Assembly (NCBI GenBank): GCA_026389845.1
Contig: JAPLHB010000203.1
Coordinates: 1-64,000 of the forward strand
Direction of reading: 5' to 3'
Source of the DNA: Chloroflexota bacterium
Lineage (GTDB): Bacteria; Chloroflexota; Anaerolineae; CG2-30-64-16
DNA: 64,000 nt
Shown here piece after piece: positions 19,401 to 63,210 of the stretch; the first letter of the stretch is position 1, and each line of letters starts with the position of its first letter. The notes beneath the pieces are model-generated. The model was not told the origin of the DNA. It worked only from the letters and a program-made list of their open reading frames with translations, and searched no databases. The position numbers were made by a program, and so were the translations under genes.

Positions 19401-19487
19401 GAAAAACGCAGTTTATGCCCGTGGGCAGTAGTCGAGAAACTGATCCGAGCGCCTTTGCGGATGGCCGCTGGTCATGATAGGGATCTT

Positions 19488-20525: not shown

Positions 20526-20643
20526 CCGACGGCCTCCTGTCCCAAGCCAAAGAAAGGAGCTGCCTCTCGAGTCATGACCCACACAAGATACCACCGAACG
20601 AAAGCGACAATATCATTCACCATTCCTAAAGGAGGAAGGTACC

Positions 20644-22794: not shown

Positions 22795-22805
22795 GCCTGC
22801 GCTGG

Positions 22806-22888
22806 GCCTGACAGGGCTGGCCAGCCCTGTCAGGCTTGAATTGGGCATATAGACCTGACAGGTCTCGCGGAACGGGCCTGTCAGGTCT
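22806..22888. repeat. Two palindromes between binding-protein and permease genes (family 8)
   Basis: A perfect 30-bp palindrome with no loop (22806-22835, GCCTGACAGGGCTGG and its complement) is followed by a 12-bp stem AGACCTGACAGG (22851-22862) / CCTGTCAGGTCT (22877-22888). There is no T tract. The position resembles intercistronic REP hairpins that stabilise binding-protein mRNA relative to permease mRNA. Confidence 0.7.
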
Positions 22889-22904
22889 GCACGGGAGGCG
22901 GTGT

Positions 22905-23894
22905 ATGTTCGGTTACATCATGCGACGTGTCTTGATCATGATTCCGACCCTGTTTCTGATTTCGGTTGTCTCTTTCGCCGCCCTCCAACTCCCCCCCGGC
23001 GACTACTTGACGTCATACGCAGCCCAATTAACCACAACGGGCGAGTACATTGACCAAGAGTCGCTTGATTCGTTGCGAGATCGCTATGGATTGGGCCAGC
23101 CGGTCTATGTGCAATACACTAAATGGGTCACCGGCATCATCACGCGCGGCGATTTTGGCCAATCTATGGAATGGCAAATGCCGGTCAAGAACCTGGTCGG
23201 GCAGGCATTGGGGCTAACGGTAGCACTGGCGGTCTTTTCGCTATTGATCAGTTGGGCGATTGCGATCCCAATGGGCGTTTACTCTGCCACGCACCAGTAC
23301 TCGATCCCTGATTACCTCATGTCCGTTTTCAGTTTTCTGGGTGTGGGCGTGCCTGCCTTTCTGTGGGCGCTCATCATCATGTATTTTGCGCAAGCCCAAC
23401 TCGGCATGAACGTCGGCGGGCTGTTCTCGCAAAAATATCTCAGCGCGCCGTGGTCGTGGGACAAAGTGGTGGACTTGCTCAAGCATCTGTGGATTCCGGG
23501 CTTGATCGTGGCGATAGAGAATACTGCCGGTGAACTCCGCACCACGCGGGCCAACCTGCTCGACGAGATCAACAAGCCCTACGTGGAGCTGGCCCGGGCC
23601 AAGGGGTTGAGCGAGCAAAGATTGATCTGGAAATACCCGGTGCGCGTGGCGTTGAATCCATTTTTCAGCACGGTCGGCTGGTCGCTGGCAAACCGCATCT
23701 CGTCCATCACGCTGATGTCGGTGGTGCTCAGTCTGCAGACGACGGGACCGCTGCAGTTGCGCGCGTTGACGTCGCAAGACATGTACCTGGCCGGCACCAT
23801 TCTCCTGTTATTGAGCGCATTGACAGTCATCGGCACACTCCTTTCCGACATCCTGCTGGCGTGGGTGGACCCGCGCATCCGGCTGGAGGGATAA
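22905..23894 (+). CDS. ABC transporter permease, DppB type
   Basis: A 329-residue inner-membrane permease with six predicted helices. TM1 is at the N-terminus (MRRVLIMIPTLFLISVVSFA), and the EAA loop is LDEINKPYVELARAKGLSEQ. The start ATG 22905 lies 8 nt after GGGAGG; an in-frame upstream extension reads through palindromic repeat sequence. It forms the membrane pore with the next gene. Confidence 0.93.
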   Translation: MFGYIMRRVLIMIPTLFLISVVSFAALQLPPGDYLTSYAAQLTTTGEYIDQESLDSLRDRYGLGQPVYVQYTKWVTGIITRGDFGQSMEWQMPVKNLVGQALGLTVALAVFSLLISWAIAIPMGVYSATHQYSIPDYLMSVFSFLGVGVPAFLWALIIMYFAQAQLGMNVGGLFSQKYLSAPWSWDKVVDLLKHLWIPGLIVAIENTAGELRTTRANLLDEINKPYVELARAKGLSEQRLIWKYPVRVALNPFFSTVGWSLANRISSITLMSVVLSLQTTGPLQLRALTSQDMYLAGTILLLLSALTVIGTLLSDILLAWVDPRIRLEG

Positions 23895-23897
23895 GAC

Positions 23898-25067
23898 ATG
23901 GCTGTTCCAGGGCAGGCAGAAAAGGAAATCGAAACAACCCCGGTCGAGGAGGAGGATCTCCAAAAAGCCGGGGAGAAGATTTATGTCGCGCCACCCTGGA
24001 AACTGATGTGGTGGCGGTTCCGCAAGCACAAGATGGCGTTGGTCTGCAGCGTGGTGTTGATCCTCCTTTATTTCGTAGCCATCTTTTGCGAGTTCGTGGC
24101 GCCCTACGATCCCGATCAGGCGATGCTCCAGTTCAAGCAAGTGCCGCCGACCGCGATCCACTTCCGCGATACCCAAGGGCAGTTTCACTGGCCGTTCGTC
24201 TACCAGCACACACGCGCCATGGATCCCGAGACGCTCCAAATCACTTACGTCGAAGACACGAACACCCGGTATCCGATCCAGTTCTTTGTACACGACTTTC
24301 AGTACAAGCTGGTGGGGCTGTGGCCAACGGACATTCACCTGTATGGTTTGCCTCCCGCCGCCAAGGAGCAGCAAGGTGTGTTTATTCTCGGGACTGACCG
24401 TCTGGGGCGGGACATGTTCGCCCGCGTGTGCTACGGCGCGCGGCTTTCGCTCTCGATGGGGATGATCAGCGTGTTCCTCAGTCTGGCGCTGGGCGTTGTC
24501 CTGGGGGGCATCTCGGGTTATTACGGCGGGACTCCTGATGTCATCATTCAGCGCGTCATCGAGTTCATCCGCACGATCCCTACCATCCCACTCTACATGA
24601 CGCTGAGCGCAGCGCTGCCGCGCGACTGGCCCATCGAGCGGGTGTACTTTGGCATCACCATGATCATTGCGGTGGTGGGATGGACCTGGATGGCGCGTGT
24701 GGTGCGCGGGCGGTTCCTGGCGATGCGCGAGGAGGACTTTGTGCTCGCCGCCCGGTTGAACGGATCGAGCCAGATGCGCATTATCCTGCGCCACATGCTG
24801 CCATCCTTCCTCTCCTATATTATCGCCGCACTGACGCTGAATATCCCCAACATGATCCTCGCCGAGACGGGGCTGAGTTTCATCGGTCTGGGACTGCGCC
24901 CTCCTGCGATCAGTTGGGGTGTGTTGTTGCAGGAAGCGATGAACCTGCGCTCGTTGGTCTTGGCGCCGTGGGTGCTGGCGCCAGGCCTCGCCGTCGTGAT
25001 TTCAGTGTTGGCGTTCAACTTCGTCGGCGATGGCCTGCGCGATGCCGCCGATCCCTACGCCCGCTAG
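23898..25067 (+). CDS. ABC transporter permease, DppC type
   Basis: A 389-residue permease. A long N-terminal cytoplasmic segment is followed by TM1 (MALVCSVVLILLYFVAIFCE) and an unusually long periplasmic loop of about 120 residues. Then come LGTDRLGRDMFARVCYGARL (hallmark of DppC/OppC), four to five further helices and the EAA loop EEDFVLAARLNGSSQMRIIL. It starts 3 nt after the stop of the DppB-type gene. Confidence 0.93.
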   Translation: MAVPGQAEKEIETTPVEEEDLQKAGEKIYVAPPWKLMWWRFRKHKMALVCSVVLILLYFVAIFCEFVAPYDPDQAMLQFKQVPPTAIHFRDTQGQFHWPFVYQHTRAMDPETLQITYVEDTNTRYPIQFFVHDFQYKLVGLWPTDIHLYGLPPAAKEQQGVFILGTDRLGRDMFARVCYGARLSLSMGMISVFLSLALGVVLGGISGYYGGTPDVIIQRVIEFIRTIPTIPLYMTLSAALPRDWPIERVYFGITMIIAVVGWTWMARVVRGRFLAMREEDFVLAARLNGSSQMRIILRHMLPSFLSYIIAALTLNIPNMILAETGLSFIGLGLRPPAISWGVLLQEAMNLRSLVLAPWVLAPGLAVVISVLAFNFVGDGLRDAADPYAR

Positions 25068-25078
25068 GAGCCCACGAC

Positions 25079-26107
25079 ATGAAACAAGATCAACTGCTCG
25101 TAGAAGTCAAGGACATCAAAACCTACTTCTTCCTGGACGAGGGCACAGTCCGGGCAGTGGATGGGGTAGATTTCAACATCTGGCGCGGCCAGACATTGGG
25201 CGTGGTCGGCGAAAGCGGCTGCGGCAAGAGCGTCACCGCACGCTCGATCCTGCGCATTGTGCCCAAACCGGGGCGCATCGTTAACGGCGAGATTACGCTC
25301 TTCCGGAAGTGCGGTGAGAACGGCAGTGGGCAGACGGAGGAAGTCAAGCTGACCGACATCAACCCGACCGGACGTACGATGTGCAGCATCCGCGGGTGCG
25401 AGATCGCGCTCGTGCCACAAGAGCCGATGGCCTCCCTCAGTCCGGTCCATACCATTGGCAACCAGATCGCGGAAGCGATCATGCTGCATCAGAGAGTAGA
25501 CAAACATGTGGGACGCGCCAAGGCCATCGAAGTGCTCGATCTGGCTGGCTTCCCGCAACCCAAGGAGCGCGTGGACTGCTACCCACACCAATTGTCGGGG
25601 GGATTGCGCCAACGCGCCGTGATCGCGATGGCGCTTTCCTGCCACCCCAGCCTGCTGATCGCCGATGAGCCGACGACTGCGCTGGACGTGACGACCGAAG
25701 CCCAGATTCTGCGGCTGATGCGCAGCCTCCAGAGCGAGCTGGGCATGGCGATCATGTACATCACGCACAACCTGGGCGTGGTTGCGCAGATGTGCGAGGA
25801 CGTGCTCGTGATGTACATGGGCAAGGTGGTTGAAGAAACCACTGTGGACGCCCTGTTCCATTCCCCGCTGCACCCCTACACGCAGGCGCTACTGCGCTCC
25901 ATCCCGCGGTTGGGTCAGAAAACACGCGGCCGGCAACGCCTGGAATCCATTCGCGGCACGGTGCCGGACCCCTACTCCATCCCCAAGGGCTGTCCCTTTC
26001 ACCCGCGCTGCACGCAGCGTATCCGGGGCGTGTGCGATCAGGAGGCGCCGCCCTGGCTCGAAGTTGAGCCGGGGCACAAGGTGCGGTGTGTGCTCTACAA
26101 GCCGTAG
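25079..26107 (+). CDS. ABC transporter ATPase, DppD/OppD type
   Basis: A 342-residue ATPase completing the importer. It has Walker [11 protein letters not shown]-loop [18 protein letters not shown], signature [15 protein letters not shown], Walker [16 protein letters not shown]-loop YITHNLGVV and the C-terminal [10 protein letters not shown] oligopeptide motif. ATG 25079 lies 11 nt after the permease stop and matches family N-termini. Confidence 0.94.
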
Positions 26108-26817: not shown

Positions 26818-29244
26818 ATGCCTGTTTACTATGCTCGCTATGAACTTGCAGACGGTTACATCCACAACTGGCTGTTCGCTGGCCCTCAGGCCATCCCCGT
26901 GCTTGACCTGGATCACTATCAGGGCCAGGACTGGAAGTTGCAGATTGCCCGCCATTACCACGTGCCAGGCACCTCGGAGGTGCCTGGCACGTCCCAACCT
27001 CCAGTACAGGACGAAGCCTTTGTGGTGGACGACACTGCGCTTACGTGGAAGTACTACCGCTGCGACGACGATCACTTCGTTGACTGCACGGCCTTTTATC
27101 ACATCTGCCATTACCTGCGCAGTTGGGCCTACAGTCGGGTCGTGAGTCCTGCGGCGCGGGAGGTGACGTGCATCCTGACGACCAACGGCCCGGCGGATGT
27201 CTGGCTGAACGGTAAGCACGTCCATCGCCATGAGCATTTCCATCATCAGATACCGGTGAGTGTCTCTTTTCGGGCCAAGCTGAAGAAAGGGCCAAACGAC
27301 TTCCTGGTGCGCTTTGAAGCGGTGGCGGCGCGCGAATGTCCGTATGCAATGGCGTTGCGGATCCTGGACCCATTGCCGGAAGCGTTCGTGTTCGTGCCAA
27401 CTTCACACGCGGGCGTGGCTCGCCGTCAAACTGTCGAAAGAGCCATTGAGGCGGCGTATCTGGATCGAGATGTGTACGTGTGGGACGACGACATCACCGT
27501 GCACTGGCCTGAGGAGATGGTTGCATCGGCCGAACTGACAGTTCGTCTCCAGAAACCATCGGGCTGGATCTATTCAGAGGCACGCCCGACCGTCTCGGCT
27601 GGATACAAGAAGTCCATGGGCCAGCCGTTTCAAGTGCCGGAGGGCCCATTCCAGATCTTCTTGATCCCCTCGCTGCAAGAGTATTACGAGGGCAATTTGC
27701 GTCTGGAACGCAAGGTCGCCTTGGCGGCGGTGCGCAACAAATACTCGCAGACCTCATACGGCACATTTGACGAGCGTCGCGGCGAGGCGCTAATGGATGC
27801 GGCTCGGCGTGAGATCAATCTCTTTTCCGAGATCGCCAAGATGGCGCTGGGCGATTGGGCCGATGTGAAGAACGACGTGATCCTGGAGGCCATCGAGGGG
27901 ATCAACCAACGCAAGGATTGCAGCGACTTCTACCTGGTCGGCCTATTGGGGATGTTGCAGCGCTACGGCGACGATCCCTCATTCCCGGAGTCACTCAGGC
28001 AGCCGCTCGAGGCGTGTGTCCTCAACTTCAAATACTGGGCAGACGAGCCGGGCGCTGATTCGATGTGGTTCTGGTCGGAAAACCACCAAATTCTGTTTCA
28101 CGCCTGCGAGATCCTGGCCGGTCAGCTTTATCCGGAGCGCACCTTTACAAACGCCGACCAGACCGGTCAATGGCATCGCGAAAAAGGCGAACGCCTGGCG
28201 ATTTCCTGGCTGCTCAAGCGCGGCGCGGGCGGCTTCAGCGAATGGGACTCGAACTGCTATTTCGAAGAGGACCTGCTGGCCCTTTCGCACCTGGCTGACC
28301 TGGCCGATAGCCAGCCCGTCTATGACCTCGCCACCGTCATCATGGACAAGATGTTTCTGACGATGGCGCTCAATTCGTACAAGGGGACGTTCGGCTCAAC
28401 CCACGGGCGTACCTACACCCCGCACATCAAAGGCGCGCGCGGGGAATCCACCGCAGGCATCAGCCGTCTGATGTGGGGCATGGGCGTTTTCAACGACAAG
28501 ATCCTGGCAACGGTCAGCCTGGCGTGCGTGGAGAACTACGGATTTCCGCGCATCATCGGCGACATCGCCGCCGACCTGCCCGAGGAGATGTGGAACCGCG
28601 AGCGCCACGCGGGCACATATGAAGAGTGGCGCGACCGGGCGGCGGGCGACTGGGAAGTGAACAAGGTGACGTACAAGACGCCGGATTCCATGCTCTGCTC
28701 CGCACAGGACTACCATCCGGGCGCAAAGGGCGTCCAGGAGCACATCTGGCAGGCCACTTTCGGGCCGGACGCCGTCGCCTTTGTCACGCATCCGCCCTGC
28801 CTGAGCGAAGAGGGCTCGCACCGTCCCGGCTTTTGGCATGGGAACGTGGTTCTGCCGCGCGTGGCGCAGTGGAAGGACGTGCTCGTCGCGGTTCACAAAC
28901 TGCCGGACGACGACTGGCTGGGCTTTACGCACGCCTATTTCCCCGCCTGGGCGTTTGATGAGCACCTGGGCCGTGCTGCGCTCGACGGCGATTTCGGCGC
29001 TTTCCAAGACAAGATCCTCGCACTGGATGTGGCTTTTGGCGACCTGGCGATGCGCTGTGCCACCCTGCGCGGCGACATGTTGGCCTTCGGCTGGGAAGGA
29101 GCGTTCTTGCGCAACGAGCAGCCGCAGCCGCTTTCCGGCTTCAAGCACTATGACAACCCGTACTGCGTTGCCGACTTGCCCGCTGCGGAGTTGGAGGTTC
29201 GTTACGGCGACCAGGTCATGCGGCTGAACTTTGCGGCTGGGTGA
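26818..29244 (+). CDS. Large protein of unknown function, paralogue of 33204-35798 (putative carbohydrate-active toroid)
   Basis: 808 residues, soluble, no signal peptide. The N-terminal about 330 residues look beta-rich (carbohydrate-binding-like: TTNGPADVWLNGKHVHRH). The central part (about 350-620) looks like an alpha/alpha barrel with the conserved run KDCSDF, FKYWADEPG, WSENHQILFHACEILAGQLY and GFSEWDSNCYFEEDLLAL, then FGSTHGRTYTPHIKG. The same motifs are shared with 33204-35798. Invariant His/Glu/Asn/Tyr residues suggest an active site of a polysaccharide lyase or glycoside hydrolase, but no known family is recognised. Residues about 48-58 come from an in-frame palindrome. It is the first gene of the operon with radical SAM and GH67; the start is ATG 26818 after GAAGAGGAAAAG. 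Confidence 0.72.
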   Translation: MPVYYARYELADGYIHNWLFAGPQAIPVLDLDHYQGQDWKLQIARHYHVPGTSEVPGTSQPPVQDEAFVVDDTALTWKYYRCDDDHFVDCTAFYHICHYLRSWAYSRVVSPAAREVTCILTTNGPADVWLNGKHVHRHEHFHHQIPVSVSFRAKLKKGPNDFLVRFEAVAARECPYAMALRILDPLPEAFVFVPTSHAGVARRQTVERAIEAAYLDRDVYVWDDDITVHWPEEMVASAELTVRLQKPSGWIYSEARPTVSAGYKKSMGQPFQVPEGPFQIFLIPSLQEYYEGNLRLERKVALAAVRNKYSQTSYGTFDERRGEALMDAARREINLFSEIAKMALGDWADVKNDVILEAIEGINQRKDCSDFYLVGLLGMLQRYGDDPSFPESLRQPLEACVLNFKYWADEPGADSMWFWSENHQILFHACEILAGQLYPERTFTNADQTGQWHREKGERLAISWLLKRGAGGFSEWDSNCYFEEDLLALSHLADLADSQPVYDLATVIMDKMFLTMALNSYKGTFGSTHGRTYTPHIKGARGESTAGISRLMWGMGVFNDKILATVSLACVENYGFPRIIGDIAADLPEEMWNRERHAGTYEEWRDRAAGDWEVNKVTYKTPDSMLCSAQDYHPGAKGVQEHIWQATFGPDAVAFVTHPPCLSEEGSHRPGFWHGNVVLPRVAQWKDVLVAVHKLPDDDWLGFTHAYFPAWAFDEHLGRAALDGDFGAFQDKILALDVAFGDLAMRCATLRGDMLAFGWEGAFLRNEQPQPLSGFKHYDNPYCVADLPAAELEVRYGDQVMRLNFAAG
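26960..26992. repeat. In-frame 33-bp palindrome (family 4, copy 1)
   Basis: Perfect palindrome of two 16-nt arms (ACGTGCCAGGCACCTC and its complement) around one G. It encodes the HVPGTSEVPGTS segment of the 26818 protein. A longer relative occurs in frame at 52002-52055. Confidence 0.85.
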
Positions 29245-29254
29245 CCGGCGCGCC

Positions 29255-31042
29255 ATGAAAGTCATGTTGATCTTCCCGCCACAGTGGACACCGGCGATGC
29301 CGCACCTGGCACTGCCGGTACTCACTGCTGCGCTGCGCGCGCATGGCGTGGAGGTCATCCAACGCGATCTGAACCTCGAAACCTACGACGCGATCTTGAC
29401 CCGCGCCTATCTTGAGCAGTCCATTGACCGTCTCAACGCCCGCTATCCACGCGGGCATCGGCGCGGCCGTCCTGTTCCCGAAAGGGTCCAGTGGGCTTGG
29501 GCAGAGGGGCCGAAGTTGGCAGCGCAAGTCGAGGCGGCCAAAGCGGTGTTTCGCAGTCCAGCGTTTTACGATGGGGAGCGGAGCCGGGCGGCGTTTCTGG
29601 TCATCGCGCAGGCGCTCGAATTGGTTTCGTTGCCCTACTTCCCGGCGCAATTCGATCTCCTGAGCTACCAACCGGCCTTGCCGGTGGATAGCAGCCGGCA
29701 CTTGCTGCAGGCGGTGCGCGATCCGGGGCGCAACATGCTCCTGGACATCTTCCGCCGCGGCATCATCCCCGACATCGTCCGTGAGCGGCCCGACATCGTC
29801 GGCATCTCGATTCCCACCCGGGGGCAGATGCCAGCGGCGATGACCCTGGCGTATCTGATCAAACAGGCGGGCCTGGATTGCCACATCACCGTGGGCGGGC
29901 CGCATGTCTCCATGCTCCGCGAGCAGATCCCGCAGACGCCGGGGCTGTTCAAGCTGATTGACAGCGCCGTCGTGTTCGACGGCGAAGTGCCATTGCTCCG
30001 ACTCGCTGGGGCGTTGGACGGCGACGGCAACCTGAGCGATGTCCCGAATCTGATCTACAAGCTGGGCGACCAGGTTCGCGTGAACCCAGTGACACATGCC
30101 GGCAGCAGCGGCTTGGGCCGCTCCGCTGCCGACCGGATGCCCGATTTCGATGGCTTGCCGCTCGACCGTTACCTGGCGCCTGATCTGGTGTTGCCGCTCA
30201 TCACGGCGCACGGCTGTTATCACGGCCGATGCGCCTTCTGCAATGTCGGATATGGGACCGGCGAAGGATTCCATGCGCTGCCGGTGGACCAGGTTTTTGA
30301 ACAGATCATGACCCTGCAGAAGAAGCACGACGTGCGCCACATCTTCTTCGCCGACGAAGCCATCCCCCCGCGCACGTTGCGCCTGCTCTCGGCGAAACTC
30401 GCAGAACAGGGTTCGCCGGTCGCGTGGTGTGGATGTGCGCGATTGGAGCCTGGGCTATCGGAGCAGTTGCTGGGGAGCATGGCGGCCGGAGGCTGCCGGA
30501 TGCTGCTCTTCGGGTTGGAGACAGCCTCGGAACGAGTGATTCGGCACATGATCAAGGGCACACGCCGCGAGACCATGAGCCAGGTGCTGCACGCCAGCGC
30601 GCAGGCCGGCATCTGGAATCACACGTTTTTCTTCTTTGGCTTTCCCACAGAAACCATGCAAGACGCGCAGGAGACGGTTAACTTTCTCTATGCCCATCAA
30701 GACTCGGTGCACTCGGCGTCGCCCGGCGTGTTTGTCCTGGAACGCTTTTCGCCGGTCCATGTTGACCCGACCAAGTTCGGCGTCAGGCGCGTTATTGACG
30801 AGCCTGATCAAGACCTGGCGATCTATTTCGATTACGAGCTTGAGGCGGGGCTAGATGAGAACATGGCGCGCACCCTTGTCGAGGGATTGTTAGGCGCCCT
30901 GCCCACCAAACGGTACGGCCAGTACTATCTCCATGATGTGAATCGTTTCTTGTACGCCAGCCACCTGCACGCCCAGGGACAACCGTTTCCGCTTTGGCTG
31001 GCGGACGAGGCGGTCACATCGGTCGAAGGACAAGAGGGTTGA
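29255..31042 (+). CDS. Radical SAM protein with N-terminal B12-binding-type domain
   Basis: 595 residues. The N-terminal Rossmann-like segment (MKVMLIFPPQ; later DIVGISIPTRGQMPAAM, DCHITVGGPHVSML) matches the cobalamin-binding domain found in class B radical SAM enzymes. The radical SAM core has the cluster motif CYHGRCAFC, a CX4CX2C variant of the usual CX3CX2C, followed by HIFFADEAIPP, LLFGLETASERVI and HTFFFFGFPTET. It lies 10 nt after the toroid gene and 11 nt before GH67. Such enzymes often methylate or rearrange unactivated carbons. A role on a modified sugar is inferred only from context. Confidence 0.88.
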   Translation: MKVMLIFPPQWTPAMPHLALPVLTAALRAHGVEVIQRDLNLETYDAILTRAYLEQSIDRLNARYPRGHRRGRPVPERVQWAWAEGPKLAAQVEAAKAVFRSPAFYDGERSRAAFLVIAQALELVSLPYFPAQFDLLSYQPALPVDSSRHLLQAVRDPGRNMLLDIFRRGIIPDIVRERPDIVGISIPTRGQMPAAMTLAYLIKQAGLDCHITVGGPHVSMLREQIPQTPGLFKLIDSAVVFDGEVPLLRLAGALDGDGNLSDVPNLIYKLGDQVRVNPVTHAGSSGLGRSAADRMPDFDGLPLDRYLAPDLVLPLITAHGCYHGRCAFCNVGYGTGEGFHALPVDQVFEQIMTLQKKHDVRHIFFADEAIPPRTLRLLSAKLAEQGSPVAWCGCARLEPGLSEQLLGSMAAGGCRMLLFGLETASERVIRHMIKGTRRETMSQVLHASAQAGIWNHTFFFFGFPTETMQDAQETVNFLYAHQDSVHSASPGVFVLERFSPVHVDPTKFGVRRVIDEPDQDLAIYFDYELEAGLDENMARTLVEGLLGALPTKRYGQYYLHDVNRFLYASHLHAQGQPFPLWLADEAVTSVEGQEG

Positions 31043-31053
31043 AGGTCGCCAAC

Positions 31054-33189
31054 ATGAGAGGCGAAGACGGCTACGAACTGTGGTTACGATATCGCCGGGT
31101 GGATGATGCGGACCACTTGGCGCAATACCGCGAGACGATCCGCAGTGCGGCAGTGCTCGGTACAGGCGCAACAGCCGCGATCATACGCAGTGAGCTTGGC
31201 CGGGCGCTGCCCGTCCTGCTGGACAACTCGGTGCCGATCTCCCGAGAGCCGTCCGGCAGCGCCCTGGTCGTGGGCACGGCTGACGAACTGGCAGCCGTCG
31301 GTGTGACCCTAGCACAGGCCGAGCGCCGCCGTTTGGGCGAGGAAGGGTTCTTGATCCGTCATCATCAGACCGAGAGCAATAACTGGCTTCTCATTGGGGG
31401 CAACTCCGGGCCGGCCGTTCTGACGGGGATATTCCACTTCCTGCGGCTGCTCCAGACGCACCAGAATATTCACGCCCTCGACCTTATGAGCCGCCCCCGG
31501 ATCCGCCACCGCATCCTCGCGCACTGGGACAATCTCGACGGCTCCATCGAGCGCGGCTACGCGGGGCGATCGCTGTGGAACTGGGATGAGCTGCCGAGAC
31601 GCATAGACCCGCGCTACCACGACTATGCCCGAGCCTGCGCCTCCATCGGCATCAACGGCGCCTGCCTGAACAACGTTAACGCCAGCGCCAGAAGCCTGAC
31701 CGCCGAATACCTGGAGAAAGCCGCCGCGCTGGCGGATGTCTTCCGGCCCTATGGTATGCGCGTCTACCTATCGCCCGTTTTCTCCGCCCCTATGGTGCTC
31801 GGGGGCCTGTCCACCAGCGACCCGCGAGACCCGGCCGTCGCCGCGTGGTGGCGGCGCAAGGCAGATGAGATCTATCGTCTGATCCCGGACTTCGGCGGTT
31901 TCCAGGTCAAGGCGAACTCGGAGGGGCAGCCGGGCCCGCAAGACTACGGCGCAAACCATGCCGATGGCGCCAACATGCTCGCCGATGCGCTCGCGCCGCA
32001 TGGCGGCATGGTGCTCTGGCGCGCCTTCGTCTACGATACGACCGTTGACGCGGACAGGGCTAAGTGCGCCTACAAGGAATTTGTGCCCCTGGATGGCAGG
32101 TTCCGCCCCAACGTTTTCGTGCAGGTGAAGAACGGCCCGGTTGATTTCCAGCCGAGAGAACCGTTCCATCCCCTCTTTGGCGCCATGAAAGGGACGCCCC
32201 TGGCGTTGGAGCTCCAGATCACCCAAGAATACCTCGGCCAGTCGGTTCATCTGGTCTACCTGGGCCCCATGTGGGAGGAGATCCTGGGGTCGGATACCTG
32301 TGCTGACGGAGCAGTCCCTCATGCCCCACGTGTCGCCGCGGAGCATGACAGTGGGCCGCGGATGGGCGCGGACGGACGCGGATTTTCCTCTTTATCCGCG
32401 CTTATCCGCAACGATCCGCGGCCTGTTCTCGGGGCCGGTTCGACGGTCGCCGAGGTTGTGGATGGCTCGTTGAACGAGCACGCTACCTCGTGCATCATCG
32501 GCGTCGCCAACACCGGCTCCGATCGCAATTGGTGCGGCCATCACTTCGCCCAGGCAAACTGGTATGCCTTCGGCCGCCTTGCCTGGGATGACAGCCTGAG
32601 CGCCCAAACGATCGCCGACGAATGGACTCGCATGACCTGGTCGAGCGACCCGTCTGTGGTGGACGCGATCGAGACGATGATGCTTGGCTCCTGGGAATCC
32701 TGCATCAACACCATGACCCCGTTGGGCCTGCATCACCTCATGCAGGAAGGCCATCACTATGGGCCTGATCCGGGTTTCCAGGCCGCGAAACGCGTGGACT
32801 GGAACAACGTTTACTTTCATCGGGCTGATAAGCGTGGCATCGGCTTTGACCGCAGCAGCACCGGCAGCAATGCGGTTAGCCAGTATCACCGCCCCTTGCG
32901 CGAGCAGTTCGATGAAATTGAGATCTGTCCTGAAAAGTTCCTGCTGTGGTTTCATCACGTGCCCTGGGATCATCGCCTCCCATCCGGCAGCACACTCTGG
33001 GGGGAGTTACAGCATCGCTACGATGCGGGCGTCGCCTTTGTCGAACGGATGCGTGACATCTGGCAGGATGTGCAGGCCGGAATTGACCCCCAGCGTCACG
33101 CGCACGTCAGCCGGCGACTGGAGCAGCAGCTAGATAACGCGCGCTTGTGGCGACAGGTGTGCATCCACTACTTCAGTCAGTTTAGGTGA
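31054..33189 (+). CDS. Alpha-glucuronidase (GH67)
   Basis: A 711-residue GH67 enzyme that removes (4-O-methyl-)glucuronic acid from xylo-oligosaccharides. There is no signal peptide, so it is intracellular. Conserved blocks are AHWDNLDGSIERGYAG, NGACLNNVNA, FQVKANSEGQPGP (E290, fits the general acid), YKEFVPLDG (D347), VKNGPVDFQPREP (E369) and FQ-type QITQEYLGQ, with a C-terminal WFHHVPWDHRLPSG. Residues 434-457 (GPRMGADGRGF...) derive from an in-frame palindromic repeat inserted in a loop after the catalytic barrel core. ATG 31054 follows the radical SAM gene by 11 nt. Confidence 0.95.
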   Translation: MRGEDGYELWLRYRRVDDADHLAQYRETIRSAAVLGTGATAAIIRSELGRALPVLLDNSVPISREPSGSALVVGTADELAAVGVTLAQAERRRLGEEGFLIRHHQTESNNWLLIGGNSGPAVLTGIFHFLRLLQTHQNIHALDLMSRPRIRHRILAHWDNLDGSIERGYAGRSLWNWDELPRRIDPRYHDYARACASIGINGACLNNVNASARSLTAEYLEKAAALADVFRPYGMRVYLSPVFSAPMVLGGLSTSDPRDPAVAAWWRRKADEIYRLIPDFGGFQVKANSEGQPGPQDYGANHADGANMLADALAPHGGMVLWRAFVYDTTVDADRAKCAYKEFVPLDGRFRPNVFVQVKNGPVDFQPREPFHPLFGAMKGTPLALELQITQEYLGQSVHLVYLGPMWEEILGSDTCADGAVPHAPRVAAEHDSGPRMGADGRGFSSLSALIRNDPRPVLGAGSTVAEVVDGSLNEHATSCIIGVANTGSDRNWCGHHFAQANWYAFGRLAWDDSLSAQTIADEWTRMTWSSDPSVVDAIETMMLGSWESCINTMTPLGLHHLMQEGHHYGPDPGFQAAKRVDWNNVYFHRADKRGIGFDRSSTGSNAVSQYHRPLREQFDEIEICPEKFLLWFHHVPWDHRLPSGSTLWGELQHRYDAGVAFVERMRDIWQDVQAGIDPQRHAHVSRRLEQQLDNARLWRQVCIHYFSQFR
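32353..32423. repeat. In-frame palindromic repeat inside GH67 (family 5, copy 1)
   Basis: The left arm begins GGGCCGCGGAT with a following GGACGCGGAT, and the right arm has TTATCCGC and GATCCGCGGCC. It adds about 24 codons between the QITQEYLG region and the later AEVVDGS block without a frameshift. Related copies lie at 45620 and 47659. Confidence 0.8.
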
Positions 33190-33203
33190 GGAGGCGTATA
33201 GCC

Positions 33204-35798
33204 ATGCATCCCAACCTATGCCGCCGCGTCCCAGCGGGCGAGATCATCAAGCCCTGGCTGATCCTGGGGCCGTTCTACGAAGACCTCTCAGCGACCGTCC
33301 AGGGGCTGACCCTCTTCGAGAAACCCGGTGCGACCGTCGGCCGCGCCGCAATGACGCAGATCGTAGGCGACGCGCAGACCATCCTTCGTTCGCGGCCGGT
33401 CGAGGGGGAGGAAACGACCTTCCGGGGCCAAGCCATGCGCTGGGAGCTGGTGCGCGGGCCCGAGAACTACCTCTCGTGGGGCCGCTACAACATCTCCAAC
33501 CACCTCGGCGCGGCGTTCCTGACGACGATCCTGACCCCCGACCAGCCCGGCGTCCATGAATGGCGACTGATCATCGGCATCACCTCGCGGGCCATCGTCG
33601 CGATCAACGGGACGGCGGTCTACGACACCGACGCGCATCCCGTGAAGCAGGCGGACGGCATTTTCGAGTACCGTTTCGAGGCCGCGCTTCTGGCCGGGGA
33701 GAACATTGTCACCGTGACGCTCTTCCGACTCGGCCGCATGGCGCAGATCGGCTGCAGGCTGGAGGCAGCCGCCGGGATGAGCGCCCGCGTACCCCTGGCC
33801 GCCTCGATGCCGGCTGAGGCGCGTGCCGGCATCGAGGCGCAGATCGGCAGCATTCGCCTGGGCCGCGATGTGTTCTACGGCGAGCACGAGATCGGCCTCC
33901 GGCTGGGCGTCGCACCTGACGCCGCCGCGCCGCTGACGGTCAGCCTGTGCACCGAGAGCGAGGAGACGTTGCGCGCGGTGCAGCCGTCGGCCGCCGGGCC
34001 GATCGTCCTTTGCCGGGGCGACGAGTTGGCTGACGGCCATTATGGGCTTCTGTGCAGTTGGGCGGCTGCTGACAGCCGACCGCTGACCGCTGCTTCGTTC
34101 GCCATCCACAAGCTGACGCCGGCCCCCGCGCTGCCAGGCTACGAGCAGTTAGCGGAGCGCAAGCGGCGCGTCCTGGCACACTACGCGGGCTTCCAGCGGG
34201 CCGAGCACCGGCCTGACATCTGGTGCGAGGTCGCCCGCTACGCGCTGGGCCGTTATGCCGAGGTGGACGAGGCCGTGATCCGGGATACCTGCCAGTTCAT
34301 CGCGGCGCGCAAGGACTGCGCGGACTTCGTCATCCAGGGCATCCTGCGCCTGATGTGCTGGGAGCGGGAACAGCCCCCTGGCGGGGATCTTCGAGAGACG
34401 CCCCAGCTCAGCCCGCAAATCCACGCCATGATGAAGGACACCGTGCTCGGCTTCAAGTATTGGGTGGACGAGCCGGGCGACACGGTGATGTACATGGGCT
34501 CCGAGAACCATCGCCTTCTGTTTCACGTGGCCGAATGGCTGGCCGGCAAGCTGTTCCCCACCGAGGAGTTCACTAACAGCCACATGCGGGGGCTTTACCA
34601 CGCCACCAAGGGCCTGAGCTACATCACCGAATGGCTGCGCCAGCGGGGGCGCTTCGGCTTCGATGAATGGCACTCCAACTCCTACTATCCCGTCAACATC
34701 GCGCCGCTGATCAACGTGTACGACTTCGCCTCGCACGAGGGGGAACAGAAGCTGCGCCAGATGACCGGCCTGGTGCTGGATTACGTATTCTTCAACCTGG
34801 CTGCCGACAGCTTCGAGGGCGTTTTCGGCACCACCCACGGCCGCAGCTACGGCATCAACCTGAAATACCCCGACTTCGAGGGCACCTCGGCCACCTGCTG
34901 GCTGCTCTACGGCGTCGGCTCGCTGAGTTGGGGTACCGATGGCATGTCGCCCGTATCCCTGGCCACGAGCGAGTACCGCGCGCCCAGGATTCTGGCCGAT
35001 ATCGCCACCGACAAGCAGGCAGTCGTTGAGTCCAAAGTCCGGCAGGGCATCATTAAGGGCGCTGCCCACCATGCCGATTTCGTGGTCTACCGCACGCCGG
35101 ACTACATGGTATCGGCAGTGCAGGATTTGCGCAAAGGTGAGTTCGAGTCCTCGACGCACGTGGCGCAGGTGACGTTGGGCAACAAGACAACCGTCTTCTG
35201 GTCCTGCCCGCACACCTCCGGCGAAGGCTCCGGGCTGCGTCCTGACTACTGGTCGGGCCACACTACGCTGCCGCGCGCGATTCAGTACCGCAACGTGCTG
35301 GCGCTCACCTGGCGGCTGACCTGGCGCGCGTGGATGTCCCACTGCTTTTTCGAGCAGGAGCGCTTCGACGAAGTCCGCTTCGCAGGCAACTGGGCCTTCG
35401 GTCGCGTGGGCCGCGGCTACGTGGGCATCTACTCGCAGCACGGCTTCGTCGTCGGTGATGAGGGGCAATACGCGGGCCGCGAGCTGCAATGCGCGGCGGT
35501 CGAGAACACCTGGCTGGTGGAATGCGGTCGCGAGGCCGATTGGGGGTCGTTCGACGCCTTCGTGAACGCGCTCGTGGCCGCGCCAGTCGAGGCGAAGGAT
35601 GGCGTCATCACGTACACGTCGCCTTCTGTCGGTAAGTTCGTCACCGGCTGGGACGTGAAGCCCACAATCAACAGCGAGCCGATCCAGATCCACGGCTACC
35701 CGCTGGTAGACAGCCCGTGGGCACACGCAGACTTCGGGTCGGGGGAGCTGACGATCCGGCACGGGGATGACGAGTACGAGATTTGGTTTAATCAGTAG
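33204..35798 (+). CDS. Large protein of unknown function, paralogue of 26818-29244
   Basis: 864 residues. Beta-rich N-terminal half (about 1-320) with WLILGPFYEDL, which resembles carbohydrate-binding/jelly-roll starts. The central part is helical-toroid-like with KDCADF, FKYWVDEPG, MGSENHRLLFHVAEWLAGKL, FTNSHMRGLYHATKG, GFDEWHSNSYYPVNIAPL and FGTTHGRSYGINLKYPDF. The C-terminus is beta-rich and ends GELTIRHGDDEYEIWF, like its paralogue. No signal peptide. RBS GAGGAGG before ATG 33204. It flanks GH67 on the other side from its paralogue, which suggests related activities on the same glycan. Family not recognised. Confidence 0.72.
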   Translation: MHPNLCRRVPAGEIIKPWLILGPFYEDLSATVQGLTLFEKPGATVGRAAMTQIVGDAQTILRSRPVEGEETTFRGQAMRWELVRGPENYLSWGRYNISNHLGAAFLTTILTPDQPGVHEWRLIIGITSRAIVAINGTAVYDTDAHPVKQADGIFEYRFEAALLAGENIVTVTLFRLGRMAQIGCRLEAAAGMSARVPLAASMPAEARAGIEAQIGSIRLGRDVFYGEHEIGLRLGVAPDAAAPLTVSLCTESEETLRAVQPSAAGPIVLCRGDELADGHYGLLCSWAAADSRPLTAASFAIHKLTPAPALPGYEQLAERKRRVLAHYAGFQRAEHRPDIWCEVARYALGRYAEVDEAVIRDTCQFIAARKDCADFVIQGILRLMCWEREQPPGGDLRETPQLSPQIHAMMKDTVLGFKYWVDEPGDTVMYMGSENHRLLFHVAEWLAGKLFPTEEFTNSHMRGLYHATKGLSYITEWLRQRGRFGFDEWHSNSYYPVNIAPLINVYDFASHEGEQKLRQMTGLVLDYVFFNLAADSFEGVFGTTHGRSYGINLKYPDFEGTSATCWLLYGVGSLSWGTDGMSPVSLATSEYRAPRILADIATDKQAVVESKVRQGIIKGAAHHADFVVYRTPDYMVSAVQDLRKGEFESSTHVAQVTLGNKTTVFWSCPHTSGEGSGLRPDYWSGHTTLPRAIQYRNVLALTWRLTWRAWMSHCFFEQERFDEVRFAGNWAFGRVGRGYVGIYSQHGFVVGDEGQYAGRELQCAAVENTWLVECGREADWGSFDAFVNALVAAPVEAKDGVITYTSPSVGKFVTGWDVKPTINSEPIQIHGYPLVDSPWAHADFGSGELTIRHGDDEYEIWFNQ

Positions 35799-35824: not shown

Positions 35825-36967
35825 ATGCCGATTATCGAAACCGAATTCATGGAGCTGACGGCGAAGCTGGACGTGAGGGCCTGGTGGGAGGAGAACGCGG
35901 GTTGCCAGGGACTCACGCCCGACAAGCCGCGCTGCTCGGCCTCCTTCTCGCCGGATGACCACTGGATCTTCGAGTTCATGGACGTGCCCTCGACGCTCCG
36001 CTACTACCTGGATCAGGCATACCGAAACGCGCTGCACCGGGAGGTCAATGCAATCACGCTGGCGCACGTGGGGCAGGCGTTTTTTGACGAAGATACCTGG
36101 CGCACGACGCCCAAGCGTATCGAAAACCTCTTCGGCTGCGAATTCGGGTACTACGAAGGCGGCACGCCCTGGCTTGAGCCAGTGACCGATGACCCCGCTG
36201 AGTTCAGCCGGGTGCTGGATCGGGCCGAGGCGACCGACCTGCGGACGTGGGCCTTGCCCCCTTCGGGGGAGTACCTGGCGGAGTGGGAGGAACGCACGGC
36301 CGCGGGCAAGCCGTTGCCGAAGCTGGGCACGGGCAGCCGCGGCCCGGCGACGATCATGACCTCGATCCTCAAGCCGGAGACGCTCTTCTACTGGTTCTAT
36401 GACCATCCCGACCTGATGCGGCGCTTCCGGGACATCCTGGCAGCCAGGATGGTCGAGTTCAATCGCGTCCTGCGCGAGTTTAGCGGGGTCACCGAGCCGG
36501 GCTGGTGGATCACCGATGACAACTCCGCGCTCTTCAACCGCAAGCTCTACCGGGAGTATTGTTACCCCGTCTTGGAGCGGGTGTTGGCCGCGATGGCGCC
36601 GGGCGACGCGCGACGCTATCAGCATTCAGACAGCGCGATGGGGCACCTGCTGGACATGCAGTACGCGCTGGGAATTCGCAACGTGAACTACGGGCCGACA
36701 GTGGATGCCGGGCTGATCCGACAGAAGATGCCCGACGCGCTGATCAACGGGCAGATGCCGCCCTTCCTCCTGCGCAACGGCGGCCCGGAAGAAATCCGCC
36801 AGCAGGTCATCGCTGACTTCCACAAGGCAGGCGGCAACGGCCGGCTGAACGTCACCACCGCCGGATCGCTGGCCGCAGGCACAGGGGTCGGCCGCATGCG
36901 GTGGTTCATGCAGGTTGTACAGGAGTGCTGTCGTTACGACAGACAGGAAAGTACACTGTATGTATAA
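35825..36967 (+). CDS. Uroporphyrinogen decarboxylase (UroD)-family protein
   Basis: 380 residues, UroD/MtaA-like TIM barrel. Blocks include FEFMDVPSTLRYYLDQAYRN, LGTGSRGPATIMTSI, YWFYDHPDLMRRFRDILAAR, WWITDDNSALFNRKLYREYC, HSDSAMGHLL and INGQMPPFLLRNGGPEEI. The family includes haem-pathway UroD and corrinoid-dependent methyltransferases. Its place inside a uronate operon, far from haem genes, favours a methyltransfer or unknown catabolic role. Start ATG 35825, 26 nt after the toroid gene. Confidence 0.87.
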   Translation: MPIIETEFMELTAKLDVRAWWEENAGCQGLTPDKPRCSASFSPDDHWIFEFMDVPSTLRYYLDQAYRNALHREVNAITLAHVGQAFFDEDTWRTTPKRIENLFGCEFGYYEGGTPWLEPVTDDPAEFSRVLDRAEATDLRTWALPPSGEYLAEWEERTAAGKPLPKLGTGSRGPATIMTSILKPETLFYWFYDHPDLMRRFRDILAARMVEFNRVLREFSGVTEPGWWITDDNSALFNRKLYREYCYPVLERVLAAMAPGDARRYQHSDSAMGHLLDMQYALGIRNVNYGPTVDAGLIRQKMPDALINGQMPPFLLRNGGPEEIRQQVIADFHKAGGNGRLNVTTAGSLAAGTGVGRMRWFMQVVQECCRYDRQESTLYV

Positions 36968-36982
36968 CAGAGGAGCAAACAC

Positions 36983-38371
36983 ATGGGTACCGCAGTCAAG
37001 ATCGGAATTATCGGCGCAGGAAGCGCCCAGTTCTCCCTGGGGCTGGTGAAAGACATCTGCCTCACGGAGAGCTTGCGTGGCAGCCACATCACCTTCATGG
37101 ATATTGATGAAGGACGGCTGGACATCATCTACAAGCTGGCAACCAAGTACGCCAGCCAACTGGGGGCAGACCTGACCTTCGACGCCACGTGCGATCGCTC
37201 GGCGGCGCTGCAGGATGCCAACTTCGTCGTCAGCACCGCTTATGTTCTCGGCCACGTGGTAGAGGCCAAGATGCGCAACCTGGCCGCCGAGAAGTACGGC
37301 TACTATCACTCCGGCGGCAGCTTCGGCTCATACCATCAACTGCGCCTGATGCTTGACGTGGCTCGCGATATGGAGCGCATCTGCCCGGACGCCTGGCTGA
37401 TCCAATCGGGCAACCCGGTGTTCAACGGCTGCACGCTGATGACGCGTGAGACCGGCATCAAGGTGTGCGGGCTATGCCACGGTCACTACGGCTGCGAGGA
37501 GATCGCCCACACCATCGGCATTGACCCGGCGAAGGTGACCTGGCAGGCGCCGGGCCTGAACCACAACATCTGGCTGACGCACTTCATCTACGAGGGCAAG
37601 AACGCCTACCCGTTGATTGACGAGTGGATCGCGACGCAGGGCGAGGAATACTGGCGCACGCACATCGCGCAGCGCACCCACGATGCCCAGATGTCGCGGG
37701 GAGCCGTGCACCAATACCACATGTTCGGGCTGTTCCCGATCGGCGACACCCTGCGGTATCGCCTGTGGTGGTGGTATCACACCGACATCGCCACCAAGAA
37801 GCACTGGTTTGGCGAGCCATGGGGCGGGCCGGACACGCACCTGGCGCGACCGTTCTTCGTGTCGCAGCTAGAAGAACGGATCAAGGAGTACCACCGCTGG
37901 GCCGTAGACCCCAAGGCCGACCTGCCGCAACTGATGGGCACGCAGAAGACCCACGAGCAGCAGGTTCCCATCATGGATGGGCTGACCAATAACACCGAAG
38001 GCTATTTCCAGGTCAACGTGCCCAATCAAGGCGCGCTGCAAGGCATCCCGGACGACGTCGTGGTCGAGGTGCCCGCGATCGTCAACCAAAAGGGCGTCCA
38101 GCCGCTGCGCGTAGGCAGCCTGCCGCCCAAGATCATGTTCGAGTGCATCCTGCCCGACTGGCTGGATATGGAACGCGAGCTGCTGGCCTTCAAGACCGGC
38201 GACCGGTCTATGCAGTTGTTCGAGACTCTGAATAACCACCAGACGCGCAACTACGATTCGGCCGTGGCTCTGCTGGACGAGCTGATCCACATGCCAGAAG
38301 TTGCGGAGATCGAAGACTGGGAGAAAATGGAGCGCATTCAGGACTATTACAAATACCCCATGCCGCTATGA
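36983..38371 (+). CDS. GH4 glycosidase, probable alpha-galacturonidase/glucuronidase
   Basis: A 462-residue GH4 enzyme using NAD+ and a divalent metal in a redox-elimination mechanism. It has the N-terminal Rossmann motif KIGIIGAGSAQFSLGLVKDI, NPVFNGCTLMTRE (Asn/Thr site) and the subtype motif CHGH at 165-168. CHG-type motifs mark uronidase members of GH4, whereas CHSV and CHEV mark galactosidases and glucosidases. LNHNIW and later His residues complete the metal site. RBS GAGGAG. In this operon it would release galacturonate or glucuronate from short oligomers. It overlaps the HAD gene by 4 nt. Confidence 0.93.
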   Translation: MGTAVKIGIIGAGSAQFSLGLVKDICLTESLRGSHITFMDIDEGRLDIIYKLATKYASQLGADLTFDATCDRSAALQDANFVVSTAYVLGHVVEAKMRNLAAEKYGYYHSGGSFGSYHQLRLMLDVARDMERICPDAWLIQSGNPVFNGCTLMTRETGIKVCGLCHGHYGCEEIAHTIGIDPAKVTWQAPGLNHNIWLTHFIYEGKNAYPLIDEWIATQGEEYWRTHIAQRTHDAQMSRGAVHQYHMFGLFPIGDTLRYRLWWWYHTDIATKKHWFGEPWGGPDTHLARPFFVSQLEERIKEYHRWAVDPKADLPQLMGTQKTHEQQVPIMDGLTNNTEGYFQVNVPNQGALQGIPDDVVVEVPAIVNQKGVQPLRVGSLPPKIMFECILPDWLDMERELLAFKTGDRSMQLFETLNNHQTRNYDSAVALLDELIHMPEVAEIEDWEKMERIQDYYKYPMPL

Positions 38372-38892
38372 ACCTGGCCGCGCTGCTTTTCGACCTGGGG
38401 GATACCATCATGGTCGAGGAAACGGAGGTCAAGGACGCGGAGGGGACAACGTTGCGGGCCGAGCTGGCGCCGGGCATGGCGGAGACGCTGCGGGAGTTCA
38501 AGGCTGCCGGGCATCGGATGGGGCTGGCGGCCGACAGTCGCCCCCGTACGCCCGAGAACGTGCTGCGCCAGCACGGCCTGTATGAGCTGTTCGACACCCT
38601 GGCCATCTCCGAGATTGTCGGCGCCAGTAAACCCGACCCACGCCTCTTCCGTGCCGCGTTGGATGCCCTGGCAATCCCGGAAAAGGACTATGGGCGGGTC
38701 ATCATGGTGGGCAATAACCTGGAGCGAGACGTCGTCGGGGCCAACCGGCTCGGCCTGATCTCGGTCTTCTATCATCTGAACGACCGGCGGCGCGCATACG
38801 CCCTGATACCCGATGAGGTCCCGCGCTACACCGTCACCTCAGCGGCGGAGTTGCGCGATCTCATCGCACGTCTGGTCAAGCAGGAGGCTTGA
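38368..38892 (+). CDS. HAD-family hydrolase
   Basis: A 174-residue HAD phosphatase-like protein. Motif I is LLFDLGDT (nucleophile Asp and +4 Asp-Thr variant DxGDT), motif II the Ser in ADSRPRT, motif III ASKPDP, and motif IV VGNNLERDVVGA. There is almost no cap domain, so it may act on large substrates or a phosphorylated sugar. Its ATG overlaps the GH4 stop (ATGA), showing translational coupling. Confidence 0.9.
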   Translation: MNLAALLFDLGDTIMVEETEVKDAEGTTLRAELAPGMAETLREFKAAGHRMGLAADSRPRTPENVLRQHGLYELFDTLAISEIVGASKPDPRLFRAALDALAIPEKDYGRVIMVGNNLERDVVGANRLGLISVFYHLNDRRRAYALIPDEVPRYTVTSAAELRDLIARLVKQEA

Positions 38893-53412: not shown

Positions 53413-53436
53413 TCGCATTCTCCTTGAAAGTTAAAG

Positions 53437-55538: not shown

Positions 55539-55541
55539 TTT

Positions 55542-56879: not shown

Positions 56880-56960
56880 TTGGCGAAGCCAGGTATTAGC
56901 GAATAGTTACATTTTGGGTCGGGTATGGCGCTATTGGTTTGCCCATCAGTCGAAAGAAGA

Positions 56961-58894: not shown

Positions 58895-58919
58895 AACCAT
58901 CCCCTACAAATAAGTTCGA

Positions 58920-59828: not shown

Positions 59829-59880
59829 AGTATCCCTCATGGTAGAGTCAGTTTTGAGTTCTAAGTTTCCGGTTGAGGGA

Positions 59881-62168: not shown

Positions 62169-62179
62169 AGACGCTACAT

Positions 62180-63127: not shown

Positions 63128-63210
63128 CACCAGGTTCCTCCCCAAAAGAACCGCCATTTAGACTGTTGGACCTGCCATCAGAGAATCACCTCGTCTCATA
63201 CTTTTTTTTG

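What the first reader, a model, noticed from the sequence alone, without database searches (positions are those of the whole stretch)
26818..35798. Paralogous pair of unassigned large proteins flanking a radical SAM enzyme and GH67
The 808- and 864-residue proteins share SENHxxLFHxxExLAG, FKYWxDEPG, EWxSNxY and FGxTHGRxY motifs with invariant His, Glu, Asn and Tyr residues of the sort found in toroid polysaccharide lyases and hydrolases. The context (alpha-glucuronidase, GH4, unsaturated uronyl hydrolases) suggests an undescribed carbohydrate-active family on glucuronoxylan or pectin side chains.
Basis: partly seen in the sequence, partly recalled or inferred. Interest (0 to 1): 0.75.

Follow-up and report, generated by a model that had tools for sequence, protein, structure and literature searches.

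The report
Unrecognised family of predicted uronide-cleaving lyases
Two related large proteins in this Chloroflexota genome belong to a widespread protein family with no name in the databases searched, found also in nitrogen-fixing Rhizobium, marine bacteria and salt-loving archaea, which by fold, active-site pattern and gene company most likely cuts acidic plant-type sugars by elimination, but nobody has tested its activity.

Summary
P1 (26818-29244, 808 aa) and P2 (33204-35798, 864 aa) are full-length paralogues (245 bits, 26% identity) carrying all four quoted motifs, either side of a B12/radical-SAM enzyme and a GH67. Neither matches Pfam, NCBIfam or PDB sequences. They belong to a large family in Chloroflexota (220 loci), on 199 plasmid records (mostly Rhizobium, Sinorhizobium and Rhodobacterales) and in haloarchaea, annotated 'hypothetical protein'. 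AlphaFold (pLDDT 93 and 83.5) gives two N-terminal beta-sandwiches, an alpha-helical domain and a C-terminal antiparallel beta domain. Profile-profile comparison with the heparinase II/III (PL12) profile reaches E = 0.0014 (19 other control comparisons, E >= 0.11) and puts P1 N422 and Y481 on the catalytic Asn and Tyr of heparinase III. Foldseek puts exo-heparinase PL15 first for P2. N and Y are kept or lost together in 99 of 100 proteins. In three alphaproteobacterial operons the gene lies beside GH88 and kduI with the transporter and, in two, kduD: a pathway missing only a lyase. I conclude: candidate new polysaccharide-lyase family (about 0.72). Substrate, the third catalytic residue and the B12-radical-SAM link stay open. 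P1 lacks 54 C-terminal residues that its relatives keep.

The parts
26818..29244 (+). P1: family protein, 808 aa, no signal peptide seen; predicted uronide lyase (copy with an internal deletion)
   Evidence: model of its 81%-identical full-length relative
28081..28086 (+). P1 codons N422-H423 of SENH; N422 is the predicted carboxylate neutraliser
28258..28260 (+). P1 codon Y481, predicted catalytic Tyr (59 residues after N422)
28962..28963 (+). junction of a clean in-frame 162-nt (54-aa) absence relative to the closest relative; would remove four strands of the C-terminal beta domain
29249..31042 (+). B12-binding radical SAM protein, recurrent same-strand partner of the family (20 of 80 loci)
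31051..33189 (+). GH67 alpha-glucuronidase
33204..35798 (+). P2: family protein, 864 aa; predicted uronide lyase of a distinct clade
34506..34511 (+). P2 codons N435-H436 of SENH
34683..34685 (+). P2 codon Y494, predicted catalytic Tyr
35825..36967 (+). URO-D/MtaA-like protein, near P2 orthologues in two relatives too
36983..38371 (+). GH4 family glycosidase
38368..38892 (+). HAD-family hydrolase
43166..44323 (+). GH88 unsaturated uronyl hydrolase, the only strong PF07470 match in the genome
44339..45652 (+). GH28 polygalacturonase-like
45662..46837 (+). distant GH88-like protein
19455..26107 (+). oligopeptide-type ABC transporter gene run (ATPase 19455-20525, binding protein 20644-22794, permeases 22836-23894 and 23898-25067, ATPase 24680-26107), homologous to the transporter beside the family in most loci

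Best explanation
P1 and P2 are members of an uncharacterised family of predicted cytoplasmic polysaccharide (oligouronide) lyases, a divergent branch of the (alpha/alpha)n-toroid plus antiparallel-beta-sheet lyase superfamily (PL12/15/17/21/33/35/39). An ABC transporter imports an oligosaccharide that carries a uronic acid. In the cleft between the helical and beta domains the Asn of SENH (P1 N422, P2 N435) neutralises the uronate carboxylate in the +1 subsite, and the Tyr of EWxSNxY (P1 Y481, P2 Y494) acts as acid/base to take the C5 proton and protonate the leaving oxygen, giving a 4,5-unsaturated uronide. GH88 then removes the unsaturated sugar, which enters KduI/KduD. SHOWN: the family, its spread, the fold prediction, the profile match and its register, the joint loss of the active-site cluster, the operons. 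INFERRED: elimination chemistry, roles of N and Y, exo or oligo mode, cytoplasmic location, substrate (most likely a pectic or rhamnogalacturonan-type oligosaccharide), and that P1 and P2 divide the work between two linkages.
For: (1) Fold: AlphaFold models at pLDDT 93.0 / pTM 0.91 (L034, 81% identical to P1) and 83.5 / 0.86 (P2) show beta-sandwiches, a helical domain and a C-terminal antiparallel beta domain. Foldseek with P2 ranks PL15 exo-heparinase 6LJL first (E 2.1e-6) and 6LJA fourth, and finds PL33 8R71 (E 5.4e-5). (2) Remote homology: hhalign of 93 canonical members against the heparinase II/III family gives score 39.9, E 0.0014; 17 neighbour-gene families score at most 23.9 (E >= 0.11) and reversed sequences at most 17.2 (E >= 0.52). 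The register puts SENH Asn and EWDSNCY Tyr on the Asn and Tyr of the PL12 family, checked through the 4MMH alignment. N-to-Y spacing is 59 here, against 54 in PL12 and exoHep and 53 in PL33 (PMC12088678, PMC7904915, PMC11848413). (3) N and Y are both present in 72 and both absent in 27 of 100 non-redundant proteins, one exception; Y ties for first among 745 columns, with the DCxDF and GRxY motifs next. (4) Gene company: GH88-kduI-FAMILY-transporter in Pannonibacter, Phyllobacterium and Gemmobacter, with kduD in the last two; FAMILY-GH88 in Rhizobium, Thioclava and Subdoligranulum; with GH88, kduD, kduI in Pseudosulfitobacter. No other lyase is annotated in those three operons. The window has the genome's only strong GH88, and the genome has two KduI homologues.
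Against: No Pfam heparinase model matches any of 57 members. Foldseek TM-scores are low (0.22-0.29), and the 50 listed hits for the P1-type model are nearly all GH2 sandwiches with no lyase. The hhalign probability is only 17.6%, and the E-value rose to significance only after widening the alignments (0.68, 0.37, 0.011, 0.0045, 0.0014). The superfamily's C-terminal catalytic His is not securely placed: the candidate (P1 H642) is kept in members that lost N and Y and absent in several alphaproteobacterial members. GH88 homologues were not seen beside the family in the 80 Chloroflexota loci. P1 may be defective. No activity data exist.
Confidence: 0.72

Rival explanations
1. A glycoside hydrolase family with a helical barrel: the proteins trim a glycosidic bond next to a uronate by hydrolysis, and the unsaturated uronides that GH88 and KduI handle come from extracellular lyases of other organisms.
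For: N-terminal domain resembles GH2 sugar-binding domains; GH28, GH67 and GH4 stand in the locus; conserved D and E residues (DCxDF, E of SENH) could be carboxylate catalysts, and the D residues are part of the co-lost cluster.
Against: The helical domain aligns with the lyase family in the register of its catalytic Asn/Tyr; the best lyase-length Foldseek hits for P2 are PL15 and PL33; three operons hold GH88 and kduI but no other annotated lyase.
Confidence: 0.15
2. A uronate C5-epimerase or other isomerase on the same fold, as human DS-epimerase 1 shares fold and Tyr with these lyases (PMC11848413), preparing the imported oligosaccharide for GH67, GH4 or GH88.
For: Epimerase and lyase share the Asn/Tyr site and the first half-reaction; several loci already carry other lyases such as PL22.
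Against: Catabolic operons with GH88/KduI and no other lyase need elimination, not epimerisation.
Confidence: 0.06
3. Part of the family, including the paralogue on contig 17 of this genome, is non-catalytic: it lost N, Y and the DCxDF and GRxY motifs but kept the rest, and may bind oligosaccharide or do other chemistry.
For: 27 of 100 members lack both N and Y while R323, W676, R684 and H708 (L034 numbering) stay.
Against: P1 and P2 themselves carry the full site, so this does not describe the pair.
Confidence: 0.5

Closest known systems
PL12 heparinase III and the heparinase II/III families (PF16889, PF07940)
   Same: Helical domain followed by antiparallel beta domain; N-H...Y pattern aligns in register (GNHRLFEA... 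and FELSPIYH of 4MMH against ENHQILFH... and FSEWDSNCY)
   Different: No Pfam match; no GHxHxD metal/catalytic motif in the beta domain; two extra N-terminal beta-sandwiches; no recognised secretion signal in P1 or P2 by eye
PL15 exo-heparinase (6LJA/6LJL) and exo-oligoalginate lyases
   Same: First Foldseek match for P2; an N-terminal beta domain before the barrel; adjacent Asn-His (N336-H337) then Tyr390, as ENH...Y here (PMC7904915, PMC12088678)
   Different: No significant sequence similarity to PDB chains; C-terminal His not securely matched
PL33 (BtPL33HA, 8R71)
   Same: Foldseek match; N238-Y291 spacing 53, proposed neutraliser and acid/base (PMC11848413)
   Different: No N-terminal sandwiches; different context (Bacteroides glycosaminoglycan loci)
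GH2 enzymes (beta-glucuronidase and others)
   Same: N-terminal sandwich is GH2-like (PF22666 in 15 of 57 members, best E 0.0018, below cut-off)
   Different: No TIM-barrel catalytic domain; resemblance confined to an accessory domain

Membership tests
Toroid + antiparallel-beta polysaccharide lyases (superfamily) | helical toroid followed by C-terminal antiparallel beta-sheet domain | tested here: met
   helices 320-588 then strands 594-861; closure of the toroid not inspected, coordinates not available
Toroid + antiparallel-beta polysaccharide lyases (superfamily) | Asn (or equivalent) neutraliser and Tyr about 53-58 residues later | tested here: met
   N422/Y481 in P1, N435/Y494 in P2, spacing 59; register by hhalign
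Toroid + antiparallel-beta polysaccharide lyases (superfamily) | catalytic His from the beta domain | tested here: inconclusive
   candidate H642 (P1) / H652 (P2), 161 / 158 residues after Tyr, but not conserved in all canonical members and not co-lost
Toroid + antiparallel-beta polysaccharide lyases (superfamily) | beta-elimination on a uronate giving a 4,5-unsaturated product | not testable with these tools
   only genomic context
PL12 / heparinase II/III Pfam families (PF16889, PF07940) | match above curated threshold | tested here: not met
   0 of 57 members at E <= 1; the own genome has no match either
Any family with a solved structure | significant sequence match to a PDB chain | tested here: not met
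GH2 | GH2 catalytic TIM barrel | tested here: not met
   secondary structure has no alternating beta/alpha barrel; only N-terminal sandwich similarity
An existing CAZy PL/GH family | membership by CAZy sequence models | not testable with these tools
   CAZy/dbCAN not held; literature searches found no description

The most novel reading that the evidence does not exclude
A founding member of a new polysaccharide-lyase family, in Chloroflexota, Rhizobiaceae, Rhodobacterales, Bacillota and haloarchaea, in which a large branch has shed the whole elimination site while keeping the rest of the fold, and whose Chloroflexota members work with a dedicated B12-dependent radical SAM enzyme that modifies or unmasks the uronide before cleavage.
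Probability: 0.2. Interest if true: 0.8.

Novelty: new variant of a known kind. Interest (0 to 1): 0.62.

Why it matters
If true, a class of lyases hidden under 'hypothetical protein' would be named at once in about 200 plasmid records, mostly of legume symbionts (Rhizobium, Sinorhizobium), and in many uncultured Chloroflexota, filling the missing step between an oligosaccharide transporter and GH88/KduI. The claim is directly testable in cultivable bacteria with one UV assay and one gene knock-out. The jointly lost active-site cluster gives a sequence rule to separate probable enzymes from probable non-lyases.

Tried and rejected
Pfam, NCBIfam, PHROG and PDB sequence searches with single proteins and profiles: nothing significant. 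Early hhalign against ten heparinase-family proteins: E 0.68 and 0.37, not significant; only wider alignments with controls gave a result. Foldseek with the P1-type model: the listed hits are nearly all GH2 accessory sandwiches, not informative for the core. Xylan-specific reading from GH67: rejected as general, since GH67 is in 2 of 80 other loci. H642 (P1) as the certain catalytic base: not upheld. Own-genome heparinase II/III genes as an alternative lyase: none found. Link of rSAM, GH4, PL22 or sulfatase genes with the N+Y+ state: only trends, rSAM p = 0.054. Independent-pairs test of joint N/Y loss: too few well-supported branches (2) to reach significance, although the best tree has 6 changes. 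Rfam: no RNA element in 18-45 kb. Literature on O-demethylation with URO-D-like proteins in polysaccharide loci: nothing relevant.

Full report
WHAT IS THERE. P1 (26818-29244) and P2 (33204-35798) are as described. They align end to end at 245 bits and 26% identity and share every quoted motif. Between them lie a B12-binding radical SAM protein and a GH67; downstream come a URO-D/MtaA-like protein, GH4, a HAD hydrolase, an unassigned 486-aa protein, two GFO/IDH/MocA oxidoreductases, GH88, GH28, a distant GH88-like protein and an SDR; upstream is an oligopeptide-type ABC transporter. No signal peptide was seen by eye, and no predictor was run.

FAMILY AND SPREAD. Single sequences and profiles match nothing significant in Pfam, NCBIfam, PHROGs or PDB sequences, except a weak GH2-type N-terminal domain. 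A scan of 84,980 species genomes confirmed 220 loci; nearly all of the 80 kept are Chloroflexota, mainly Anaerolineae and Caldilineaceae. The family is patchy: 12 of 60 class relatives, 5 of 400 genomes across the phylum, with a loose first look. The window's own genome has four members: P1, P2, one on contig 225 and one on contig 17. Outside the phylum it is on 199 plasmid records, mostly Rhizobium (123), Pseudosulfitobacter (40) and Sinorhizobium (12), plus Haladaptatus and Subdoligranulum, annotated 'hypothetical protein' where annotated. P1 and P2 fall in different clades of the tree, so they are old paralogues rather than a recent duplication; the two kinds occur side by side in at least six other loci (L035, L037, L040, L049, L084, L086).

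FOLD. An AlphaFold model of L034 (81% identical to P1) has pLDDT 93.0 and pTM 0.91; that of P2 has 83.5 and 0.86. Both give an N-terminal beta-sandwich, a second beta domain, a helical domain (about 320-588) and a C-terminal antiparallel beta domain (about 594-861). Foldseek with P2 lists PL15 exo-heparinase first (E 2.1e-6) and a PL33 lyase (E 5.4e-5) among many GH2 N-terminal sandwiches; TM-scores are low because domains are arranged differently or the alignment spans several domains. With the P1-type model the 50 listed hits are nearly all GH2, with no lyase among them. I could not inspect coordinates, so closure of the toroid and geometry of the site are not verified.

REMOTE HOMOLOGY AND REGISTER. 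hhalign of the family with heparinase II/III-family proteins from related genomes moved from E 0.68 through 0.37, 0.011 and 0.0045 to 0.0014 as alignments were widened and restricted to members with the full motif. Controls: 17 neighbour-gene families gave E of 0.11 or more and score at most 23.9; reversed sequences E of 0.52 or more and score at most 17.2, against 39.9. The heparinase profile finds heparinase III 4MMH at E 5e-94 and other toroid lyases (PL15, PL17, PL21, PL35, PL39) more weakly. In this register the N of SENH falls on the N of GNHRLFEAQ and the Y of EWDSNCY on the Y of FELSPIYH. These are 54 apart in 4MMH, which fits the published N240 and Y294 (PMC12088678, Table 4). In P1 they are N422 and Y481, in P2 N435 and Y494, both 59 apart.

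JOINT LOSS. In 100 non-redundant members N and Y are both present in 72 and both absent in 27, with one exception. Of 745 columns compared with the N column, Y ties for first (99/100), with C371 and F374, then D373 (98), Y536 (97) and D370 (96), L034 numbering. Scanning every column removes the choice of column from the argument. The best tree needs 6 changes, but only 2 are forced by well-supported branches and 21 of the 27 lie in one clade, so independence is modest. E424, R323, W676, R684 and H708 persist in most N-/Y- members. I read this as loss of an elimination site with retention of fold and perhaps binding. The candidate C-terminal His (L034 H645, P1 H642) does not follow the pattern; the third catalytic residue is unresolved.

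PATHWAY. In Pannonibacter, Phyllobacterium and Gemmobacter the order is LacI, GH88, kduI, FAMILY, binding protein, two permeases, UgpC, with kduD following in the last two and a sugar kinase in Gemmobacter. In three Rhizobium plasmids it is FAMILY, GH88, GH28, UgpC and permeases. In Thioclava FAMILY-GH88-transporter lies beside kduD, kduI and rhamnose catabolism genes; in Pseudosulfitobacter with GH88, kduD, kduI and a TRAP transporter; in Subdoligranulum next to GH88. Haladaptatus is an exception, with no GH88 nearby. GH88 acts on 4,5-unsaturated uronides, and KduI and KduD on the released sugar (established knowledge), so a lyase is the missing step. In Chloroflexota the company differs: transporter genes in 51-57 of 80 loci, B12-radical SAM in 20, always on the same strand, GH4 in 9, GH67 in 2; no GH88 cluster appeared there, but the window holds the genome's only strong GH88, and two KduI homologues are elsewhere in the genome.

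CAVEAT ON P1. P1 lacks 54 residues (162 nt, in frame) present in its closest relative and in the other aligned full-length members; in the L034 model they cover strands at 729-776. P1 in this assembly may be inactive, or the assembly may be wrong here.

VERDICT. A real, widespread, unnamed family, most likely a new polysaccharide-lyase family within a known superfamily. The mechanism is well motivated but untested; the substrate is a guess that leans to pectic oligosaccharides. 'Undescribed' rests on the libraries searched here and on open-access papers; CAZy was not available.

Noticed in passing
window 28962/28963 (P1): Clean in-frame 162-nt absence relative to L034 within the C-terminal beta domain of P1; not seen in the other aligned members.
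   Followed up: partly
window 29249-31042 and cluster 5 in 20 of 80 loci: B12-binding radical SAM protein, always on the same strand as the family gene; cysteine motif reads CYHGRCAFC (CX4CX2C) in the window copy. A role in a catabolic operon is unexplained. A second B12-radical-SAM type (cluster 15) sits in 5 further loci.
   Followed up: partly
window 35825-36967: URO-D/MtaA-CmuA-like protein (below NCBIfam cut-offs) directly after P2, also near P2 orthologues in L114 and L115 and after a family gene in L050; function unknown.
   Followed up: partly
window 39276-40736: 486-aa protein without Pfam or NCBIfam match; a homologue in only one of 80 related loci (L036).
   Followed up: no
G000 contig 17 144770-147289 (L002) and contig 225 24318-26330 (L004): Two more family members in the same genome; the contig 17 copy has lost the Asn and Tyr, the contig 225 copy lacks the N-terminal sandwiches.
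   Followed up: partly
L072, L076, L078, L079, L080, L082, L083, L106: Recurrent triad GH5 - DUF362 - family gene, DUF362 gene mostly within 300 bp of the family gene.
   Followed up: no
cluster 18 (e.g. L098:707-1201): Unassigned 165-aa ORF immediately upstream of the family gene in 7 loci (median gap 4 bp), no Pfam match; may be a start-site or gene-calling effect.
   Followed up: no
window 14327-18205: Single 1292-aa regulator joining periplasmic-binding-type, histidine kinase, receiver and AraC domains upstream of the locus.
   Followed up: no
window 52300-63157: Surface-polysaccharide gene run on the minus strand (GT2, Wzy-type ligase, flippase, sulfotransferase, epimerase).
   Followed up: no
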